Source of the DNA: Occallatibacter riparius
Lineage (GTDB): Bacteria > Acidobacteriota > Terriglobia > Terriglobales > Acidobacteriaceae
NCBI RefSeq assembly: GCF_025264625.1
Contig: NZ_CP093313.1
Location: 3,906,001 to 3,970,000 of the forward strand
Direction: 5' to 3'
Length of the DNA: 64,000 nt
Part shown: in pieces, positions 11,461 to 21,212 of the stretch
How positions within the stretch are numbered: position 1 is the first letter of the stretch
How the letters are laid out: each line of letters starts with the position of its first letter
Program-made: the position numbers and the translations under genes
The notes under the pieces: model-generated
Told to the model about the DNA's origin: nothing
Databases searched by the model: none
Seen by the model: the letters and a program-made list of their open reading frames with translations, nothing else

Positions 11461-12294
11461 CTATTCCAGAAACTCGCGCACAAACGGATCTTCACTGTGA
11501 ACAAGGTCGTGCAGCGAGCCATCGAAGAGGATCTTCCCGTCGTTCATCATCAGGAACGTGGTGTTCTGATCCGTTTCGCCCTCAGGCAGTTTCACCATCG
11601 CGCCTTTGTCCGAGTCGAACCGGTGCGTGCACATGGTGAATGCGTCCTGCAGCCGATGCGTCACCATGATTGACGGCGTTCTGTAGAAGTCCCTCTGCTT
11701 CACGATCAGTTCGATAATCGTTGTCGACGTGACCGGGTCCAGCCCTCCCGTCGGGGAATCGTACAACAGCAGTTCCGGCTGCCGGATCAGTGCCCTCGCG
11801 ATGGCTACGCGCCTGCGCATACCGCCTGAGAGGCTGCCTGGGAAAAGCGAAAAGGTCTGTTCCAGTCCTACGAACCGCAAAGCCTCGAGGACCCGGCTGT
11901 CGATCTCTTCGTCGGGCACCTCTTCCTGGATTAACTGGTACGCCACATTGTCGCGGACCGTCAGCGAATCAAACAGCGCACCCTCCTGGAAGACCATACC
12001 CGTGCGCAGGCGCAGCGGAAACAGGTCGCGCTCCCGCAGTTGCGAGATGTCATTGCCCAATAGGACAACCTGACCGGAATCCGGGCATATCAACCCGTTG
12101 GCGGTCTTCAGCAGCACGCTTTTTCCAACGCCTGCGGGACCCAGCAGGACGCGCGTTTCCCGAGGGCCAACGGCGAAACTCACCCCATCCAGCACGTCTG
12201 GCCCGTTAAACGAGATGTGCACATCACGAAACTCCACGACCGGCTGCGCAGCCGCTTCGTCCTGGTGCATCGCCACTGCGGGAGCTTCGTTCAT
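11461..12294 (-). CDS. mlaF: MlaF-like ABC transporter ATP-binding protein
   Basis: A 277-aa ATPase expected to energise an MlaE-type permease moving phospholipids between the inner and outer membranes. It has a Walker A (GPAGVGKS), a signature LSGGM and a Walker B ending YDSPTGGLDP. The catalytic glutamate that normally follows the Walker B aspartate is serine here, confirmed from the codons around 11750. Its start overlaps the mlaE stop as ATGA (12291-12294), so the two are coupled. No MCE-domain (MlaD) gene is adjacent in the window. The name rests on the MlaE pairing. Confidence 0.85.
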   Translation of the reverse strand: MNEAPAVAMHQDEAAAQPVVEFRDVHISFNGPDVLDGVSFAVGPRETRVLLGPAGVGKSVLLKTANGLICPDSGQVVLLGNDISQLRERDLFPLRLRTGMVFQEGALFDSLTVRDNVAYQLIQEEVPDEEIDSRVLEALRFVGLEQTFSLFPGSLSGGMRRRVAIARALIRQPELLLYDSPTGGLDPVTSTTIIELIVKQRDFYRTPSIMVTHRLQDAFTMCTHRFDSDKGAMVKLPEGETDQNTTFLMMNDGKILFDGSLHDLVHSEDPFVREFLE

Positions 12295-13070
12295 CGGCTG
12301 AAGATGGACACCATCAGGGTACTGATGAGCAGGTCGACGAAGATGATGAGGACGGATGCGAACACGACGGCCTTGATGGTCGATTGACCTACGCCCTGTG
12401 TTCCGCCGGTTGTCCGCATCCCGTAGAAGCATCCGATCGAAGCAATGATGAAACCGAAGCAGAGAGGCTTGACGAGGCCCTGTAGAACATCGCCAAAAGC
12501 GAGGAACTGGTAGGCCTGCGAGAAATACTGCCCACCGTTCTGGTGATTCATGAACACCGTCACCGCGGCGCCCCCGAGAATGCCGCAGAAATCCGCCACA
12601 ATCGTCAGGAAGAACAGCATTACGATCGTTGCGTACACGCGGGGCGTCACCAGCTTGCGCATCGGGTCCACGCCGAGCGCGCGCATCGCATCAATCTGTT
12701 CCGTCACTACCATCGAGCCCAGTTCGCTGGCCATTGAGGAAGCGTTGCGCCCCGATACCATGATGCCCGTCAGCACCGCGCCCAGCTCGCGGATCATTGA
12801 CAGGCTCACGAACCGGCCCGTTACCGCCGTTGCGCCGAACGCTGCCAGCGTCGCCGCCGATTGCACTGCGAGAACGCCGCCGGTGAAAAATCCCGCAAAC
12901 AAGACAATCATCGTGGAACCGACGCCAATGATGTCTGCCTGCAGAATGAAATCGGACCAGTAAACGGGCGCGCTGAATAGATTAAGAACAGCCCGAAGCG
13001 AGAACAGGGTGTAATCCTGAACCGTGAGTACGAATTGTTTGGCGGTTCTATCGATCCTGTCTAGCGCCAT
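12291..13070 (-). CDS. mlaE: MlaE-type lipid ABC transporter permease
   Basis: A 259-aa integral membrane protein of the MlaE/YrbE permease family with about five hydrophobic segments. Family stretches are GFFTGGVLAVQSA, REL-GAVLTGIMVSGRNASSMASELG, TEQIDAMRALGVDP and the GCFYGMRTTGGTQGVG region near the C-terminus. With MlaF it probably forms the inner-membrane engine of an MCE-type phospholipid transport system. It is the first gene of a minus-strand unit, divergent to the trehalose synthase gene across 241 nt. Confidence 0.93.
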   Translation of the reverse strand: MALDRIDRTAKQFVLTVQDYTLFSLRAVLNLFSAPVYWSDFILQADIIGVGSTMIVLFAGFFTGGVLAVQSAATLAAFGATAVTGRFVSLSMIRELGAVLTGIMVSGRNASSMASELGSMVVTEQIDAMRALGVDPMRKLVTPRVYATIVMLFFLTIVADFCGILGGAAVTVFMNHQNGGQYFSQAYQFLAFGDVLQGLVKPLCFGFIIASIGCFYGMRTTGGTQGVGQSTIKAVVFASVLIIFVDLLISTLMVSIFSR

Positions 13071-13311
13071 CGAATCCCGTTCGTTTGCGGAACACGGCCG
13101 CTCGGCTCGGCGCGCTGCTCTCCACGACAGGATAGCGCATCTCGTCCGCTCGCCCTACACTGTTGGCAGGTCCTTCGCGTGGACGATTCTCCCGCAGCTT
13201 GAGACAAGTAACTGATCTAGCTGCCCGTTTTCAGCATCTTACTATCTGGCCCACAACGCGCGAACAGGTGATGTGTAGGCGTTCGTGCCCAAAAGTACGG
13301 AGGTATAGGGG

Positions 13312-15615
13312 ATGCGCCATTTCCGCATGAGGTTGATTCTCGCTCTGATCGTGGGGATCACTCTGCTTTCTCTGGCCTCCACCTATTTCGAGGTTCTCGC
13401 CCGCAAGCATGCACTGCGCAGCGAGTTGGAGCGCCGCACTGGATGGCTCGGCACCAGTCTTCAGCCCTACATGGAAGAGGCTCTCGCGACCGGCGCCACG
13501 CCGCAGATCGCGGCGGTTGCGCAGGAACTGCGCCGTCACGAGGAATCCATCGGCCTCGCGATCTACGACACGAAGGGCAATCTCCAGGTCTTCGACGGAC
13601 CGGAAGCCCTCATACGGAGCCTTCCTCCGGAGGCCGTTCGCAAAACCATAAAAGAGGGCGCAAACTCGAGCCAGTTCGGCCGCACCGGCGATCAGTACTG
13701 GCTGCAGGAAGCGATCCCGCTTCACGTCAACGGTCAGCCAGCCGGCGCTCTGGTTGTACTAGAGGATGCCGGATACATTCGGCACGAAGCCTCGGCCGTA
13801 TGGCAGCAGACATTTTTGCGCATTTGCGCGTCTGTAATTCTCATTGTGGGCGTCACGGTTTTAATGATCCGCTGGTTTCTCATGCGGCCCATCACCAGGC
13901 TCGCCGAGCGGCTCCGCCTTCTTCGCATGGGCAATCCCGAACACGGGATTCTTGATGAAGTCGACGACCTGAGCCTGTTCACGCCGATCGCGCGCGAAGT
14001 CGAAAACATTACAGAAAGCTTGATGGAAGCCCGCGCCGCCGCGGCTGCCGAAGCACGCTTGCGCGAAGCCGGCGAGAACCTCTGGACTGCCGAGCGCCTG
14101 ACCGTCCACGTGCGCCAGCACGCCGGCTCTGGCCAAATCTTCGTCGTGTCCAATCGCGAGCCCTACATGCACGTGCGCCAGGGCAAGGAGACTGTCTGCA
14201 TGGTCCCGCCCAGCGGCCTGGTGACTGCCATCGAGCCGGTCCTGCGCGCGTGCGACGGCGTGTGGGTAGCGCAGGGAAGTGGCAGTGAAGATCGCCTGTT
14301 TGTGGACAGTCATGACCGCCTCCGCGTTCCGCCCGACGATCCCAAGTACACGCTGCGCCGCGTCTGGCTCTCGGCCGAAGAGGAGTCGGGCTACTACGAC
14401 GGATTCGCGAATGAAGGCCTCTGGCCGCTCTGCCACATCGCGCATACGCGCCCCATCTTCCGCGCCTCGGACTGGGAGTGCTATCAGACCGTCAACCGCA
14501 AATTTGCGCACGCCCTGCTGCATGAGATGGAGGACACAGAGGAGCCCATCGTCTTTGTGCAGGACTATCACTTCGCGCTGCTGCCGCGCATGATCAAGGC
14601 GGTTCGGCCCGATGCCCGCGTGGCCATCTTCTGGCATATTCCGTGGCCAAATCCTGAAGCCTTCGGCATCTGCCCGTGGCAAGCGGAGCTTCTCGACGGC
14701 CTGCTCGGCGCTGATCTCATCGGCTTCCACATTCCGCTTCATTGCAACAACTTCCTCGACACGGTGGATCGCGTGCTCGAGTCGCGTACAGATCGCGAGC
14801 ACATGGCTGCGCGACGCCGTGGGCACACCACTATCATTCGGCCGTATCCCGTCAGCGTAGCCATTGATCCCACTGGCACCGATCGTGCCGCCTGGAGCCG
14901 CACCAGCGACGAGTTGCTGCGCGAGTTCCACATTAAGGCCGACAAAATCGTGCTCGGTGTGGACCGCATGGACTACACCAAGGGCATTGTCGAGCGGCTC
15001 CAGGCTTTCGAGCGCCTGCTGGAAGACCACCCGTGGCACCGCGAACGCGTCACCATGGTGCAAATTGCCGCTCCCAGCCGCACGCGTATCCCCAGCTATG
15101 CCGATCTGCGCCGCCGGGTCGAAGCTACGGTGGAACAGATCAACACTCGATTCGAGACGCCTGACTGGCGCCCCGTTCTGCTCATAGAGCGGCAATGCAG
15201 CCACGAAGAAGTTTCTGACTGGTACCGCGCCGCCGACATCTGCCTGGTGACATCACTGCACGATGGCATGAATCTTGTAGCGAAGGAATACCTCGCAGCT
15301 CGCGACGATGAAGACGGCGTGCTTGTGCTGAGCAAGTTCACGGGCGCCGCAGTCGAGCTGCGCGATTCCCTCATCGTCAACCCGTACGACATCGACGGAG
15401 TCGCCGATGCAATCCATCGCGGCCTCGAGATGAATGCTACCGACCGCCGGCTTCGCATGCAGCGCATGCGGCGGCATGTTATGGAGCATAACGTATACCG
15501 CTGGGCGGCTACCGTTCTCGGTGACCTCCGCGAACTGCGCATCGAGACCCCGGACGTCCGGCAGGAAACCATGGTGTTGCAAAGGGCTGAAAGCGCCCAG
15601 CGCAAGCGCGCCTAG
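13312..15615 (+). CDS. otsA: Membrane sensor/HAMP domain fused to trehalose-6-phosphate synthase (GT20)
   Basis: A 767-aa fusion. Residues 6-27 and 167-191 are membrane segments bounding an extracytoplasmic domain of about 140 residues, like a chemoreceptor or kinase sensor. Residues about 190-243 look like HAMP plus coiled coil. Residues from 275 are a complete GT20 synthase joining UDP/GDP-glucose to glucose-6-phosphate. Catalytic residues are present: VVSNREP (R282), QDYH (D418), WHIPWP (H442), VDRMDYTKG (R552, K557) and SLHDGMNLVAKEY (D651, E659). Ordinary OtsA is soluble and about 470 residues long. A membrane-tethered, signal-responsive synthase is inferred. The phosphatase gene follows after 67 nt. 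Confidence 0.92.
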   Translation: MRHFRMRLILALIVGITLLSLASTYFEVLARKHALRSELERRTGWLGTSLQPYMEEALATGATPQIAAVAQELRRHEESIGLAIYDTKGNLQVFDGPEALIRSLPPEAVRKTIKEGANSSQFGRTGDQYWLQEAIPLHVNGQPAGALVVLEDAGYIRHEASAVWQQTFLRICASVILIVGVTVLMIRWFLMRPITRLAERLRLLRMGNPEHGILDEVDDLSLFTPIAREVENITESLMEARAAAAAEARLREAGENLWTAERLTVHVRQHAGSGQIFVVSNREPYMHVRQGKETVCMVPPSGLVTAIEPVLRACDGVWVAQGSGSEDRLFVDSHDRLRVPPDDPKYTLRRVWLSAEEESGYYDGFANEGLWPLCHIAHTRPIFRASDWECYQTVNRKFAHALLHEMEDTEEPIVFVQDYHFALLPRMIKAVRPDARVAIFWHIPWPNPEAFGICPWQAELLDGLLGADLIGFHIPLHCNNFLDTVDRVLESRTDREHMAARRRGHTTIIRPYPVSVAIDPTGTDRAAWSRTSDELLREFHIKADKIVLGVDRMDYTKGIVERLQAFERLLEDHPWHRERVTMVQIAAPSRTRIPSYADLRRRVEATVEQINTRFETPDWRPVLLIERQCSHEEVSDWYRAADICLVTSLHDGMNLVAKEYLAARDDEDGVLVLSKFTGAAVELRDSLIVNPYDIDGVADAIHRGLEMNATDRRLRMQRMRRHVMEHNVYRWAATVLGDLRELRIETPDVRQETMVLQRAESAQRKRA

Positions 15616-15682: not shown

Positions 15683-16540
15683 ATGGATATTTTCCAAGAG
15701 GCGAAACCAGTGACTGAAGAAGCCACCAAGACGCTGCAGAACTATTTCGCGACTTTCACCCCGGGAACCCGGCCCCTTCTCCTCCTCGATTACGACGGCA
15801 CGCTCGCGCCGTTCCGTGTCGATCGCTCCAAGGCCCGTCCTTACACCGGCGTACGCGAAGCCATAGCCAAGATCATCCACCAGGGCCAGACGCGCCTGGT
15901 CATCATCACCGGCCGTCCCGCTCGCGAGATTGGACCGCTGCTGCGCGGCTTTCCGCCTATCATTGATCAACCCATCGAGGTCTGGGGATTGCACGGCTCC
16001 GAACGTCTGCACGCCGACGGCCGCCGCGAGCTCGAGGAAGCTCCGCCCGCCACGCAGCGCCGCCTGGACGAACTCCGCGAATATCTGCGCCACAACAATC
16101 TGGGCGGCGAATTCGAAGACAAGCCCAATGCCGCTGTGATGCACTGGCGCGGCGCCTCACCGCGCACCGCCAAGTTCATTGAGATGCGCACGCGCGAGCT
16201 GTTCGAGCCCATCTCGCGCCTTGACGGGCTGATGCTCCTGCAATTCGAGGGTGGCCTCGAGTTGCGCGTCGGTCGCGACAAGGGCGCTGCAATTCGCACT
16301 CTGGTAGGTGAGATGCCGGCGGGAACGCCCGTTGCGTACGTTGGTGACGATGTGACGGACGAGGCGGCTTTCATAGCGCTCAATCAAATCCCTGCGCCGC
16401 ACCTGAGTGTGCTCATGCGCGGTGAGCCGCGCGAAACCGCAGCGAATCTGTGGCTGCGCCCTCCGTCAGGTCTGCGAGGTTTCTTGAAGAGGTGGTACAA
16501 GGCGCTTCAGAACGAAGGCCGGCGCAAGAAGGTGGCGTGA
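15683..16540 (+). CDS. otsB: Trehalose-6-phosphate phosphatase
   Basis: A 285-aa HAD-superfamily phosphatase removing phosphate from trehalose-6-phosphate. HAD motif I is LLLDYDGTLAPF (near residue 36), motif II is in VIITGRP, and motif IV is YVGDDVTDEAAF. It is cotranscribed with the sensor-fused synthase. The pair completes the OtsA/OtsB route from nucleotide sugar to trehalose, used as an osmoprotectant and desiccation protectant. A downstream codon (GTGACTGAAG, near 15710) could be the true start. Confidence 0.94.
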   Translation: MDIFQEAKPVTEEATKTLQNYFATFTPGTRPLLLLDYDGTLAPFRVDRSKARPYTGVREAIAKIIHQGQTRLVIITGRPAREIGPLLRGFPPIIDQPIEVWGLHGSERLHADGRRELEEAPPATQRRLDELREYLRHNNLGGEFEDKPNAAVMHWRGASPRTAKFIEMRTRELFEPISRLDGLMLLQFEGGLELRVGRDKGAAIRTLVGEMPAGTPVAYVGDDVTDEAAFIALNQIPAPHLSVLMRGEPRETAANLWLRPPSGLRGFLKRWYKALQNEGRRKKVA

Positions 16541-16606: not shown

Positions 16607-18046
16607 CTACTCTCGCCCGCGCTTCCGAATCTCGATGTTTAGCCGCTTAATCTTCTGATTCAACGTCGACAGCGGGATGCGGAACTGCTCTGCTGCGTCG
16701 GTCTGATTCCAGTTGCAGCGTTCCAGTTTCTCCACGATGATGCGGCGTTCGATGTCTTCGAGGATGTCGAACAGTGAGGCATTCGGGTTGTGTTCCAGTA
16801 GCGCATCCTGGAAGCTCCGGCCCGTGATGTGTCCCGGCAGCAGGTCGCTCCCGATCATCGGTCCCGACGACAGCACCACGCCGCGCTCGATGCAGTTCTC
16901 GAGCTCGCGCACATTGCCTGGCCACTCGTAATCCATCAGCGCCCGCATGGCATCGGTCGAGAGTTTCCGCGGCGGCAGTCCGTTCTCATTGCAGTAGAAC
17001 TCGAGGAAATGCTGCACCAGCGGTGGAATATCCTCGCGACGCGCCCGCAGCGGCGGCAGATCCACCGTGATCACGTTGAGGCGGTAGAACAGATCCTCGC
17101 GGAACCGCCCATCGCGCACGGCCTGCCTCAGGTCCACATTGGTGGCTGCAATAATGCGCACGTCCACCTGGATCTCCTGGATACCGCCCAGGTGCATGAA
17201 ACGCCGGTCCTGCAGCACGCGCAGGATTTTCGCCTGCGTGTCCATTCCCATCGTCGCAATCTCGTCGAGGAACAGCGTGCCGCCGTTCGCGACTTCGAAC
17301 AGGCCCTTCTTTGATGCGATAGCCGAGGTGAATGCGCCCTTCACGTGCCCGAACAGCGTCGATTCCAGCAACTCCGAGGGCATCGCGCCTGTGTTGATCG
17401 GAACGAACGGCTTGTCTTTACGCGGCGAATTCGCATGAATCGCCTTCGCGATCAGCTCCTTGCCTGTGCCGCTCTCGCCCTGAATCAGAACCGTGGACCG
17501 GCTCGGCGCCACCTGTGCCACCAGGTCGAACATCCGCAGCATCGTCTCGCTCTTGCCCACGATGTTGGTGAAGTTATAGCGCTGCTTCAGCGTGCGCTTG
17601 AGTTGCAGATTCTCTTCTTCGGCCTTGTGGCGCGCGATCGCCGATCGCATATCGGCCAACAGCTTTTCATTGTCCCACGGCTTCTGGACGAAATTCTCCG
17701 CGCCCGCGCGGATCGCCTCTACCACGTTATCCACCGTACCGTAGGCGGTAATCATGATCACGGGAGTCTCGGGCTGCCGGTCCTTGATCATCGGAAGCAG
17801 TTCAAGGCCGCTCTTGCCGGGGAGCGCGAGGTCAAGCAGCACCAGGTCGAAGTTCTCCAACTCCAGGATGCGCAAACCCTGCTCGCCATCCGCGGCCATC
17901 TTGACCGAATAGCCTTCGAGCGTCAGCAGCACCTCCAGCGAATCGCGGATGCCCGCCTCGTCGTCAATTACCAGGATGCTTGCGATAGTGGTGTTGCCAT
18001 TCGACGTCGTCGCCGAAACGTTCAAAGGAAGATCGACTTCAGGCAT
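16607..18046 (-). CDS. NtrC-family sigma-54-type response regulator with variant GAFTGA loop
   Basis: A 479-aa regulator in three parts: receiver domain (25-140, phospho-acceptor D72), AAA+ domain (about 160-390; Walker A GESGTGKE 190-197, Walker B TLFLDEIA) and a C-terminal Fis-type helix-turn-helix. NtrC-type proteins hydrolyse ATP to open sigma-54 polymerase promoters. The sigma-54 contact loop reads FGHVKGAFTSA (about 232-242) instead of the usual FGHEKGAFTGA, so sigma-54 dependence is not certain. Its start overlaps the histidine kinase stop by 8 nt, marking them as a two-component pair. Target genes cannot be named. Confidence 0.92.
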   Translation of the reverse strand: MPEVDLPLNVSATTSNGNTTIASILVIDDEAGIRDSLEVLLTLEGYSVKMAADGEQGLRILELENFDLVLLDLALPGKSGLELLPMIKDRQPETPVIMITAYGTVDNVVEAIRAGAENFVQKPWDNEKLLADMRSAIARHKAEEENLQLKRTLKQRYNFTNIVGKSETMLRMFDLVAQVAPSRSTVLIQGESGTGKELIAKAIHANSPRKDKPFVPINTGAMPSELLESTLFGHVKGAFTSAIASKKGLFEVANGGTLFLDEIATMGMDTQAKILRVLQDRRFMHLGGIQEIQVDVRIIAATNVDLRQAVRDGRFREDLFYRLNVITVDLPPLRARREDIPPLVQHFLEFYCNENGLPPRKLSTDAMRALMDYEWPGNVRELENCIERGVVLSSGPMIGSDLLPGHITGRSFQDALLEHNPNASLFDILEDIERRIIVEKLERCNWNQTDAAEQFRIPLSTLNQKIKRLNIEIRKRGRE

Positions 18047-20921
18047 GGACTGAATTCCTTAAAAGGGGAAACTCAAGGTGAAAAGTGGTGCCGGCGCCAA
18101 TGGCGCTCTCCACATGGATTTTGCCTGCGTGCTCCTGGATGATTCCGTAGGACACGCTCAGTCCCAGCCCCGTGCCGCGCTTGCCGCCCGGAGCCGGTAT
18201 CGTCTTGGTCGTAAAGAACGGATCGTAAATGCGCTTCATGTGTTCCGGTGAGATACCCGATCCGGAGTCGCTCACCACCGCTTCCACGTGGCCGTTCACC
18301 AGCGTGGTCACGCGCAGGTTGCCGCCGCTCGGCATCGCTTCCTTTGCGTTCAAAAGCAGATTCAGAAATACCTGTTGCAGCTTGCCCGCATTGCCGTGAA
18401 TCGGCGGCAAGTCCGGGGTCAGTTCCATATCAACGTGGATCTGCGCGGTCTTGAACTGGTGTTCCAGCAGCGACAGCGTGTCGCGGATCACCTGGTTCAG
18501 ATTCGTCGCCTTCATCTCGGTCGTGGAGGTCCGGGAGAAGTTGAGGAGTCCGTTCGCGATCTCGGCCGCTCTGAAGCTCTGCTGCGTAATCTTTTCGAGC
18601 ACGGGGCTCAGTCGCGCATCGCCGCGCAGTTGCTTGGCAAGCATCTGCGCGTAGCTTGAAATTACCGCCAGCGGTGTATTGATCTCGTGCGCCACGCCCG
18701 CAGCCAGCAAGCCGATCGAGCTCAGCTTGTCAGCCTGCGCGAGCTGTCCTTCAAGCGTCACGCGCTCAGTGATGTCATCCACGAGCACGATGCGGCCCAC
18801 CGGCACAAACTCGCGCGAGAGCAGCGGCGCTACGGCAATGTTCGCGGTGCGCTGCTCGCCGGCCCGCGTGATCAGCCTGAACTTGTAGAGGTTGTGCACG
18901 CCCGCTTCATTCTTGAATGAGTCCAGCGCATCACAGACCTCCGCGGGAAATACGGAACGAAGCACCTGACCGAGCACCTCACCGCGGCTCAGCGCATACA
19001 TGGCTTCCATCTGCGCGTTCCAGCTCTCGATCCGGTCATTCAGGTCGACCGCCAGGATGCCTACGTTGATGGATTCGACGATATTCTCGTTGAATTCCTT
19101 CAGCCGCTCGAACTCAGTAATCTTCGCTTCAAGCCGCGAGTACAGGCTGGCGTTCTGCAGTGCGATCCCGATATACCCGGCCAGCGACTCGAGCAATTCC
19201 ACGTCCTCGCTGGAGAGGAAGTCGCCCCCTACCGTGCGGCCCAATCCGATCACCGCAATCGTCCGCGTTGCCGATCCGTCCTGCACCCTGCATGGCAGAT
19301 AGTAGTTCAGGTCAAGCAATGCGGCCGTCTGGCGCTGCCCCTCAGGCAGATGCAGTGCCTGCTGCGCGTTCTCAAGGAAGATGTGAGAGTGGTCCTGGTT
19401 CTGGTCGAAGTCCAGGAACCCAAGCTCCAGCCCGGCCAATCCCGCGCCATCCTGCAATGCGCGAACCTCGGATTGCAGACCGTGGCTCGCAGCCAGGCGC
19501 AGCCGGCCGTTCTCGCCAGCCAGGAACATGGCCACGCGAGACACCAGAAGCGTGCGCGGCAGCCGCTCCACGATTGATTCCAGCAGCGCCTTCAGGTCTG
19601 TCTCGGAACTCAGCCCGCGGCCGAACTCGATGAGGGTCTTGCGATAGTCATATTTATGGCGGTCGAACACTCGGTCGACCCAGCTCTGGATGCGCCGCTT
19701 CAATGGCTCAAAGAACGCTGCAACGAGAAGAATGGCAATGCCGCCGCCCCAGTCGCGGAACGACTCAGGCAGATTCTTGTGTGCCAGATCTGCCACCAAG
19801 GCAAGGATTCCAAAGTATCCGCCGAGGATCAGGCCCGTCGCCAGCGTGTACGCCACGCCGCGCTTGAAGATCAGGTCCGTATCCATCAGCCGATAGCGGA
19901 CGATGGCCCAGCTAAACGTCAGCGGAAGGAAGATCAGCGAGAGTCCGGCGAGCTTGGTGAGGATTGCTGGGATGCGCAGGTCGAAGAGGAATGGGATCGC
20001 GCTCAGCAGAGTGAACGGCAGCACTGCGAGCAAAGTGCCGCGGGTAAGCCACTTCAACTGCTGGCGCAGCAGGGGAGTGTTCGCGCGGGCGTAGCTGCGC
20101 AGGAATAGGGCAGTCGCGACCAGGTAGAAGAAGGCGTCGTATGCCACTCCCGCCTGGTTCAGCCGGTGCATCAGCAGCCCGGTGGCCTGCCAGCGGGTGA
20201 AGGCACAAATCCACAAGCCCAGCAGCACGATTCCCGGAGCGTAGATAACGGGTAGCAGCCAACGCCGTGGCAGGCTGCGCAGGCGCTCTTCGGGGAATGT
20301 CAGCGCAAAATGCAGAAACAGAGCCGGTTGCAGCGATTCGGCCAGGACGTTACACCAGAACACGGCCCAATCAACCGCATCCAGCTTTCCGGTATACTTC
20401 AGCGAGTAAAGTGCAAACGATACAAGACAGAAGAGATAGAAGTGCGTTGCGCGCGGAGCAGTCCAGCGCCGGAACAGCACATACATGCCGATGGCGAGGT
20501 AGATCAGGCCGATCACCCGCAAGGCTTGCGCCAGGCTGCGATCAACCGGCTCCGGTACCACCGGGATGGGCGTATCGAGCTTAATGCCGTCGCGCGTGAT
20601 GGAATAGCGCGCCGTGCCGTAGACGCCCGTCCGGTAAAGTTCCCGCACCTGGTCCGACAGGCGGTGCACCGGAACATCATTTACTTCAGTCAATAGATCG
20701 TTTGTTTTGAGACCGTATCTGTCGCCCGGGCCGCCCGGCAGAACCTTGTCCGCGATGAGGCCGGCACCGTTCGCCGCCTCCGACCACCATACGCCGTCAT
20801 CCGGCTGCTGATTCCGGACCTCGGTGTCCTGCATCAGGTTCCACGCCGCAAGCAGCACCAGCCCCACCGTCATAATGGCGAGGAGCGTGGCTTGCAGGCG
20901 GTTCGATAGGTTGGTCTCCAT
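18039..20921 (-). CDS. Multi-domain sensor histidine kinase (PDZ, 7TM-like, GAF, PAS)
   Basis: A 960-aa membrane kinase from the ATG at 20921 (a GTG at 20966 would add 15 residues). Order: membrane segment 10-28; periplasmic PDZ-like domain about 44-110 (GAGLIADKVLPGGPGDRYGL); a run of about six to seven membrane segments 130-405; GAF-like domain 435-595; PAS 605-720; dimerisation domain with phospho-acceptor H745 (AAGVAHEINTPL); and HATPase with NLLLNAKEA and GTGLGLSVSYGII. It phosphorylates the NtrC-type regulator encoded next. The PDZ suggests sensing of a C-terminal peptide or misfolded envelope protein, but this is inference. Confidence 0.92.
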   Translation of the reverse strand: METNLSNRLQATLLAIMTVGLVLLAAWNLMQDTEVRNQQPDDGVWWSEAANGAGLIADKVLPGGPGDRYGLKTNDLLTEVNDVPVHRLSDQVRELYRTGVYGTARYSITRDGIKLDTPIPVVPEPVDRSLAQALRVIGLIYLAIGMYVLFRRWTAPRATHFYLFCLVSFALYSLKYTGKLDAVDWAVFWCNVLAESLQPALFLHFALTFPEERLRSLPRRWLLPVIYAPGIVLLGLWICAFTRWQATGLLMHRLNQAGVAYDAFFYLVATALFLRSYARANTPLLRQQLKWLTRGTLLAVLPFTLLSAIPFLFDLRIPAILTKLAGLSLIFLPLTFSWAIVRYRLMDTDLIFKRGVAYTLATGLILGGYFGILALVADLAHKNLPESFRDWGGGIAILLVAAFFEPLKRRIQSWVDRVFDRHKYDYRKTLIEFGRGLSSETDLKALLESIVERLPRTLLVSRVAMFLAGENGRLRLAASHGLQSEVRALQDGAGLAGLELGFLDFDQNQDHSHIFLENAQQALHLPEGQRQTAALLDLNYYLPCRVQDGSATRTIAVIGLGRTVGGDFLSSEDVELLESLAGYIGIALQNASLYSRLEAKITEFERLKEFNENIVESINVGILAVDLNDRIESWNAQMEAMYALSRGEVLGQVLRSVFPAEVCDALDSFKNEAGVHNLYKFRLITRAGEQRTANIAVAPLLSREFVPVGRIVLVDDITERVTLEGQLAQADKLSSIGLLAAGVAHEINTPLAVISSYAQMLAKQLRGDARLSPVLEKITQQSFRAAEIANGLLNFSRTSTTEMKATNLNQVIRDTLSLLEHQFKTAQIHVDMELTPDLPPIHGNAGKLQQVFLNLLLNAKEAMPSGGNLRVTTLVNGHVEAVVSDSGSGISPEHMKRIYDPFFTTKTIPAPGGKRGTGLGLSVSYGIIQEHAGKIHVESAIGAGTTFHLEFPLLRNSVHA

Positions 20922-21212
20922 AGCGGGGTGCCTGATCAAGAATTCCTTATGCACGTACCTTGCCACGCGGCAGGGGCCCGGGAGTGTGGTCGAGGAACTC
21001 CGTCCACATTGCTGAGAACATTCACGATATGGACGTACTGGGCCCGGTTAAGTCAGCCAATTTCGCGCACAAGCGGCGAAATAATGCAGAAATATGGAAC
21101 CAGTATACAGAAAGATGAAAGCAGCTATGGTATTCGATAGTGCTTTACAAAACAATCGCTTACGGTAGTTTCCTCGACGGTTTTCCAGATTTCGTAGACG
21201 CTCAGAGAGTAA

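What the first reader, a model, noticed from the sequence alone, without database searches (positions are those of the whole stretch)
13312..15615. Membrane sensor-HAMP-trehalose-6-phosphate synthase fusion
GT20 synthases are normally soluble. This one has two membrane segments, an extracytoplasmic domain of about 140 residues and a HAMP-like linker directly joined to an intact catalytic domain, as if a chemoreceptor's output had been replaced by an enzyme. It suggests direct control of trehalose synthesis by an external (osmotic or desiccation) signal without a kinase or transcription step.
Basis: partly seen in the sequence, partly recalled or inferred. Interest (0 to 1): 0.72.

Follow-up and report, generated by a model that had tools for sequence, protein, structure and literature searches.

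The report
Membrane-sensor trehalose-6-phosphate synthase
A gene that makes the first intermediate of the stress-protectant sugar trehalose is fused to a membrane sensor of the kind normally found in bacterial signalling proteins, and the same fusion recurs in many bacterial groups, so trehalose production may be switched directly by an outside signal.

Summary
ORF 13312-15615 (+) encodes 767 aa: TM1, a ~137-residue extracytoplasmic domain, TM2, a HAMP-like two-helix unit (191-241), a helical linker and an intact GT20 domain (276-740, E 5.6e-123). The window protein alone matches no Pfam sensor or HAMP model, but its family does: the AF2 model (pLDDT 89.5) superposes on WalK's TM-Cache-TM-HAMP unit, and six histidine kinases with Pfam HAMP match the N-terminal profile at 2e-36 to 8e-28 over the same stretch. 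It is not a one-off: best hits bear 11 phylum-level labels, and in this phylum (Acidobacteriota, from named relatives) at least 32 of 106 GT20-bearing genomes carry a sensor-GT20 gene. It is the genome's only GT20, followed by a trehalose-phosphatase gene; phosphatase, TreT and DUF5752 genes recur near relatives. The HAMP-to-enzyme stretch is 52 or 53 residues in 47 of 47, but other parts of the protein are as constant. Direct gating is inferred; the signal, osmotic or chemical, is unknown. No paper on it was found in the held library. Side finding: a related GT20 branch is fused to a Na+/H+-exchanger-type membrane domain.

The parts
13299..13304 (+). GGAGGT, likely Shine-Dalgarno sequence, 7 nt before the ATG
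   Evidence: sequence
13312..15615 (+). sensor-HAMP-like-GT20 fusion gene, 767 aa
13333..13392 (+). TM1, residues 8-27 (first part of a predicted helix 2-60)
   Evidence: hydropathy; AF2
13393..13803 (+). extracytoplasmic Cache-like sensor domain, residues 28-164
   Evidence: AF2; WalK extracellular domain 4ywz_B Z 15.1, 2.3 A over 133
13804..13881 (+). TM2, residues 165-190
   Evidence: hydropathy; AF2
13882..14034 (+). HAMP-like unit, residues 191-241 (P193; E229 in the second helix)
14035..14082 (+). linker, residues 242-257, helical for the most part in both models (low confidence in the full-length one)
14083..14136 (+). W258-T-x-E-R-L motif and predicted helix 260-271, probably the natural N-terminus of this GT20 subfamily
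   Evidence: W258 and L263 invariant in A2 (49 rows) and A4 (47 rows); a W motif also stands at the start of 4 of 6 nearest soluble relatives
14137..15531 (+). GT20 trehalose-6-phosphate synthase domain, residues 276-740
   Evidence: PF00982 E 5.6e-123; 11 substrate-site residues conserved
15683..16540 (+). otsB-like trehalose-6-phosphate phosphatase gene, same strand, 67 nt downstream
   Evidence: PF02358 E 1.4e-13

Best explanation
This is a one-protein transmembrane receptor-enzyme. A Cache-like domain outside the cytoplasmic membrane senses a stimulus not yet identified; the conformational change passes through TM2, a HAMP-like two-helix unit and a helical linker into the GT20 catalytic domain, and changes its rate of trehalose-6-phosphate synthesis. 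The neighbouring phosphatase turns T6P into trehalose. SHOWN here (by sequence or prediction): anatomy, homology of the N-terminus to histidine-kinase sensor-HAMP modules, conserved substrate-site residues, wide distribution, single GT20 in the genome, linkage to trehalose genes. INFERRED: dimerisation, gating of activity, direction of the effect (on or off), and a stress-related (osmotic or desiccation) signal.
For: N-terminal AF2 model (pLDDT 89.5) aligns over 268 of 275 residues with WalK (9a5d_A, itself an integrative model; Z 15.6, 3.8 A; Foldseek E 3.8e-7) and with WalK extracellular crystal structures (4ywz_B Z 15.1, 2.3 A). The family profile finds the TM2-HAMP region of methyl-accepting chemotaxis protein I in the PDB at E 0.0012; other sensor and HAMP chains follow only at E 0.02 or worse. 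Six ORFs of the same phylum that match the N-terminal profile at 2.0e-36 (L016) to 8.3e-28 (L019) over about positions 1-250 are histidine kinases: all six carry Pfam HAMP, HisKA and HATPase_c, their HAMP aligning with P0001 191-241. From E229 in HAMP helix 2 to S280 in the enzyme there are 52 residues in 40 and 53 in 7 of 47 rows; the HAMP connector varies 21-33 and the extracytoplasmic part 126-142. 11 of 13 recalled E. coli OtsA site positions carried the recalled residue, and all 11 are identical in this protein and in eight membrane-attached relatives. The 60 rows of this group fall on one side of a branch of the GT20 tree (SH-aLRT 94). Neighbours within the flanks held: phosphatase 41 of 80, TreT-type 26 of 80, DUF5752 21 of 80.
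Against: No activity, membrane or signal data exist. Pfam finds neither HAMP nor a sensor in the window protein, and HAMP in only 10 of 49 rows even at E up to 1. The fold comparison mainly tests residues 8-179; few rows reach the HAMP part, and the full-length model has pLDDT 56-72 over residues 201-260. Linker constancy is not exceptional: windows of 52 residues along the protein have a median of 44 of 47 rows at the modal length against 40 for this one, and it could reflect shared descent of one fusion. The sensor domain is the least conserved part (mean column identity 0.42 against 0.70 for GT20), so one common ligand is not evident. The enzyme scores below NCBIfam's equivalog cut-off for OtsA (453 of 564.85 bits).
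Confidence: 0.57

Rival explanations
1. Membrane anchor only: the N-terminus places T6P synthase at the membrane (near envelope glycan or transport machinery), and the receptor module has lost or never had a gating role.
For: HAMP is not recognised by Pfam here; the sensor domain diverges (0.42); linker constancy is no greater than elsewhere in the protein; a related GT20 branch is attached to a multi-TM exchanger domain instead, so attachment itself may matter.
Against: An anchor needs neither a Cache fold nor a HAMP-like relay, yet two TMs at near-constant spacing recur in 68 of 80 loci (one of the 68 has three segments), and the fold matches a receptor.
Confidence: 0.25
2. About the signal (not exclusive of the best explanation): the receptor senses a specific small molecule or envelope state rather than osmotic or water stress; trehalose synthesis is then tuned to nutrient or envelope status.
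For: Closest folds include citrate-binding CitA and DctB/DcuS sensor domains as well as WalK; Pfam sCache_3_2 and dCache_1 hits in 10 and 8 of 49 rows at E up to 1.
Against: Trehalose is an established osmo- and desiccation protectant (general knowledge); no ligand-site motif was tested here.
Confidence: 0.45
3. T6P itself is the message: the receptor makes T6P as a signalling metabolite rather than to feed trehalose production.
For: No phosphatase relative was found in 39 of 80 loci; the architecture mirrors receptors whose output makes a second messenger (recalled).
Against: Several of those 39 loci are short or cut by contig ends, a single query at E 1e-3 can miss divergent phosphatases, and the gene may lie elsewhere; in the window it is adjacent, and other trehalose genes recur.
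Confidence: 0.07
4. Artefact: a mis-assembled or mis-read join of a kinase sensor and an otsA gene.
For: None found.
Against: Single contig of 6.79 Mb, similar GC3 along the gene, full-length match in 36 of 100 genomes of the family and in many phyla.
Confidence: 0.01

Closest known systems
WalK/YycG sensor histidine kinase, TM-Cache-TM-HAMP portion
   Same: Fold and order of TM1, extracellular Cache-like domain, TM2, HAMP (Z 15.6 over 268 of 275 residues; crystal ECD Z 15.1)
   Different: 12-13% identity; output is a GT20 enzyme, not kinase domains
Sensor histidine kinases of the same phylum (L016, L017, L019, L020, L024, L030)
   Same: Homologous over the sensor-HAMP stretch, collinear with the N-terminus of P0001
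   Different: Carry HisKA and HATPase_c after HAMP
OtsA, trehalose-6-phosphate synthase (E. coli OtsA; PDB 5jij)
   Same: GT20; 11 substrate-site residues identical; best PDB sequence match 5jij E 9.2e-95
   Different: E. coli OtsA has no N-terminal module; 32% identity; lies outside the branch that holds this group (long branch)
HAMP-linked receptor enzymes (membrane adenylyl cyclases, GGDEF, PP2C proteins; recalled, not searched)
   Same: One polypeptide senses outside and acts inside through HAMP
   Different: Their products are signals or protein modifications; here the product is a sugar-phosphate of osmolyte synthesis
Salt-activated osmolyte enzymes such as GgpS (recalled)
   Same: Osmolyte synthesis controlled after translation
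   Different: Soluble and ion-sensing; no transmembrane receptor

Membership tests
GT20 / PF00982 | Profile match over the curated cut-off across the whole domain | tested here: met
   411.6 bits (cut-off 32.5), profile 3-472 of 473
Trehalose-6-phosphate synthase (OtsA function) | Substrate-site residues of E. coli OtsA (positions recalled) | tested here: met
   11 of 11 usable positions identical: R282 G302 Y362 W371 D418 H442 R552 K557 R590 D651 E659; two further recalled positions did not carry the recalled residue in E. coli and were not counted
Trehalose-6-phosphate synthase (OtsA function) | Makes T6P from UDP-glucose and glucose-6-phosphate | not testable with these tools
   Needs an enzyme assay
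NCBIfam TIGR02400 trehalose_OtsA equivalog | Score at or above 564.85 bits | tested here: not met
   453.1 bits
NCBIfam TIGR02398 glucosylglycerol-phosphate synthase equivalog | Score at or above 569 bits | tested here: not met
   326.8 bits
Cache superfamily | Extracytoplasmic PAS-like sheet preceded by a long N-terminal helix that extends TM1 (PMC4822843, passages) | tested here: met
   AF2 helix 2-60, strands between 79 and 152, helix 154-205; WalK extracellular domain Z 15.1; by prediction only
Cache superfamily | Sequence match to a curated Cache profile | tested here: inconclusive
   None for the window protein; sCache_3_2 in 10 and dCache_1 in 8 of 49 rows at E up to 1
HAMP domain | Pfam PF00672 match in this protein | tested here: not met
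   No match at E up to 10 (HMMER's filters drop weak ones); 10 of 49 rows at E up to 1, best 3.6e-5
HAMP domain | Two cytoplasmic helices after TM2 joined by a connector, conserved Pro at the start of helix 1 and Glu in helix 2 (features recalled) | tested here: met
   Helices to 205 and 221-256 (221-252), P193 and E229 at 90% or more, aligned with Pfam HAMP of homologous kinases
HAMP domain | Parallel dimeric four-helix bundle | not testable with these tools
   Only monomer prediction on hand
Transmembrane receptor-enzyme | Enzyme activity changes with an extracytoplasmic signal | not testable with these tools
   Needs biochemistry

The most novel reading that the evidence does not exclude
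A whole branch of GT20 enzymes is physically wired to membrane input modules: in large groups a Cache-HAMP receptor, in another a Na+/H+-exchanger-type domain. In them the output of a transmembrane receptor is not a kinase or second-messenger enzyme but the committed enzyme of compatible-solute synthesis, switched post-translationally and directly from outside.
Probability: 0.43. Interest if true: 0.8.

Novelty: new variant of a known kind. Interest (0 to 1): 0.63.

Why it matters
[quoted passage not shown] A biosynthetic enzyme as the direct output would extend one-component transmembrane signalling to metabolism, and would offer a simple, testable system: one protein, one measurable product, an exchangeable HAMP module. 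It also bears on how soil bacteria such as Acidobacteriota make trehalose, since this is the only GT20 in this genome, although TreS is also present.

Tried and rejected
Pfam and NCBIfam on the single protein for the sensor: nothing in Pfam, weak AtoS in NCBIfam (E 1e-4); replaced by family profile and structure. phmmer of the N-terminus against PDB: only a chance hit, Runx1 at E 0.84. tRNA scan of the window: none. Paper searches, ten in all: six listed no paper; some searches listed 1, 8 and 3 papers, none about such a protein by title and start of abstract, not opened; one search was a search for HAMP outputs and listed 9. PMC1183210 and PMC4822843 were seen as passages only. For the exchanger fusion only one search was run. 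Assembly artefact and frameshift join: rejected. I considered W258 as a coupling residue, but 4 of the 6 nearest soluble relatives (L137, L140, L141, L142; not L139, L145) start with a W motif too, so it probably belongs to the enzyme's own N-terminus. One search read minus-strand loci in the wrong orientation; one search replaced it.

Start codons were chosen mechanically; 68 of 80 loci show two or more hydrophobic segments, 9 show one in the ORF chosen (L051, L075, L076, L077, L079, L080, L089, L098, L101), 2 are cut by contig ends (L061, L094), 1 failed in the script (L095). The 35 genes / 32 genomes figure was made by comparing the tables by eye; one of the 35 (G074) is split over two frames and one (G201) matches only the TM2-HAMP part; one search's list was truncated, so it is a lower bound. 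The 36-of-100 and 4-of-198 figures were counted by eye. The tree used the quick method and rows of my choice: 60 of the 99 sensor-GT20 loci, labelled by origin (four of them, L076, L077, L098, L101, showed one hydrophobic segment), 11 of a second sensor group, 8 exchanger fusions and 22 without TM; forks among the sensor groups and nearest soluble rows are unresolved, and E. coli OtsA is a long branch. TreS-like and ABC-type names of neighbour clusters are by eye; TreT and DUF5752 were checked by Pfam on one member each.

Full report
WHAT IS THERE. The ORF at 13312-15615 (+) encodes 767 aa. Its start is fixed by an in-frame TAG two codons upstream and preceded by a good Shine-Dalgarno sequence. 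Residues 276-740 are a complete GT20 domain. The N-terminal 275 residues hold two TM segments, with positively charged ends on what would be the cytoplasmic side (by eye), and a domain of about 137 residues between them. A trehalose-phosphatase gene follows 67 nt downstream (PF02358, E 1.4e-13). The genome, a single contig of 6.79 Mb, has no other GT20; it does have TreS elsewhere (927 bits, cut-off 678). Its phylum is Acidobacteriota by its named relatives (the GT20 of G261, 'same phylum', is identical to that of L084, a Vicinamibacterales record).

IS THE N-TERMINUS A SENSOR? For the single sequence Pfam says nothing and NCBIfam gives AtoS at E 1e-4 as its best match. With 49 diverse rows (A2) the picture changes. 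NCBIfam's CreC and WalK kinase models match 32 and 30 of 49 at E up to 0.1 (best WalK 3.7e-13). Pfam SMP_2 matches 20, HAMP 10 (best 3.6e-5) and sCache_3_2 10 (best 1.4e-7) of 49 at E up to 1. The profile finds the TM2-HAMP region of methyl-accepting chemotaxis protein I in the PDB at E 0.0012; a WalK sensor (5is1, 0.022), AF1503 HAMP (0.1 or worse) and DcuS (0.47) come only as weak hits. AlphaFold2 gives pLDDT 89.5 with the Cache layout: one long helix 2-60, a helix 63-77, a five-strand sheet, a long helix 154-205, a connector, a helix 221-256. Foldseek's best match is the WalK model 9a5d (E 3.8e-7); VIA-align gives Z 15.6 over 268 of 275 residues, and Z 15.1 at 2.3 A to the WalK extracellular crystal structure 4ywz (mostly residues 8-179 are tested). 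In the phylum the profile also finds histidine kinases: the six that I scanned (L016, L017, L019, L020, L024, L030) match at 2.0e-36 to 8.3e-28 over about positions 1-250, and all six carry Pfam HAMP, HisKA and HATPase_c, with HAMP aligned to residues 191-241 here. So the enzyme carries a receptor module homologous to kinase input modules.

IS THE ENZYME INTACT? Of 13 substrate-site positions recalled for E. coli OtsA, 11 carried the recalled residue in the annotated E. coli sequence, and all 11 are identical in this protein and in eight other membrane-attached GT20 proteins. The score is nevertheless under NCBIfam's OtsA equivalog cut-off, which fits a separate subfamily.

HOW ARE THE TWO JOINED? 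In 47 full-length rows the stretch from E229 in HAMP helix 2 to S280 in the enzyme is 52 residues in 40 and 53 in 7, while the HAMP connector varies from 21 to 33 and the extracytoplasmic part from 126 to 142. Against over-reading this: 52-residue windows along the whole protein have a median of 44 of 47 rows at the modal length, so the linker is merely not variable. The full-length model shows a helix 221-252, a break at 253-259 and a helix 260-271 in front of the enzyme, with pLDDT 56-72 over residues 201-260. The W258 motif probably marks the enzyme's own N-terminus, since 4 of the 6 nearest soluble relatives start with a W motif; the receptor was then added directly in front of it.

HOW WIDESPREAD? 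In 297 genomes of the phylum, 106 have a GT20 over the cut-off; at least 32 of these have the N-terminal profile directly upstream of it (35 genes, one split over two frames, one matching TM2-HAMP only; compared). In the family, 36 of 100 genomes (37 genes) match the full-length profile from position 4 or earlier to 720 or beyond, one with an in-frame TAG. In the phylum of Niastella soli, Bacteroidota, 4 of 198 do (5 genes). Named best hits bear the labels Acidobacteria, Elusimicrobia, Omnitrophota, Nitrospirae, Methylomirabilis, Rokuibacteriota, Patescibacteria, Bacteroidota (Niastella, Bacteroidales), Deltaproteobacteria, Gemmatimonadetes and Edwardsbacteria (most are MAGs, and the Edwardsbacteria ORF chosen showed one hydrophobic segment). 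In a tree of 101 GT20 domains the 60 rows of this group form one side of a branch (SH-aLRT 94); a second sensor group (11 rows, support 100), eight exchanger fusions with one GT20 without TM, and six soluble rows lie in the same larger branch (support 100), apart from 15 others including E. coli OtsA.

NEIGHBOURS. Within the flanks held for the 80 loci (up to 6 kb, often less), a trehalose-phosphatase relative was found in 41, a TreT-type glycosyltransferase in 26, a DUF5752 gene in 21, and a TreS-like gene in 9 (Pfam check of one TreT and one DUF5752 member). The gene neighbourhood is about trehalose.

MECHANISM. Best supported: a transmembrane receptor-enzyme in which an outside stimulus is relayed through TM2 and a HAMP-like unit to the catalytic domain. 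Anatomy and homology are shown by sequence or prediction; gating, its direction, dimerisation and the stimulus are inferred. The main rival is a plain anchor. The osmotic-signal idea is plausible from the product but untested; a chemical ligand is about as likely.

NOVELTY. Receptor-enzymes with HAMP are known; with a biosynthetic glycosyltransferase as output I found none in the held library. A census of Cache proteins reports known signal-transduction outputs except for SMP_2 (PMC4822843, passages). I cannot exclude that domain databases list the architecture. I call it a new variant of a known kind.

SIDE FINDING. Eight GT20 genes of other genomes of the phylum (L113-L120) join a multi-TM N-terminus to GT20 in one open frame; the four scanned match PF00999 Na_H_Exchanger at E 2.3e-18 to 6.9e-23.

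Noticed in passing
L113-L120 (G175, G183, G054, G088, G116, G014, G151, G028): GT20 domain fused in frame behind a multi-TM N-terminus; four of four scanned match PF00999 Na_H_Exchanger. A second membrane-attached T6P synthase architecture, possibly tying ion transport to osmolyte synthesis.
   Followed up: partly
L112, L121-L130: A second, divergent sensor-GT20 group (11 rows, support 100), some with ILANREPY in place of VVSNREPY; its N-terminus matches the same sensor profile.
   Followed up: partly
L038:3406-4134 and similar loci: DUF5752 genes lie near 21 of 80 sensor-GT20 loci, in several between it and a TreT-type gene: a candidate trehalose-linked protein of unknown function.
   Followed up: partly
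window 11461-13070 (-): Divergent ABC transporter pair (permease and ATPase, by eye Mla-like) upstream of the fusion; a similar permease is found near 7 and a similar ATPase near 9 of 80 relatives.
   Followed up: no
window 16607-20966 (-): Sigma-54 response regulator and a large histidine kinase with PDZ, GAF and PAS domains, convergent to the otsB-like gene; no link to trehalose tested.
   Followed up: no
L015 (G074:C19): Sensor part and GT20 part lie in two different frames, a frameshift or assembly error in that genome.
   Followed up: no
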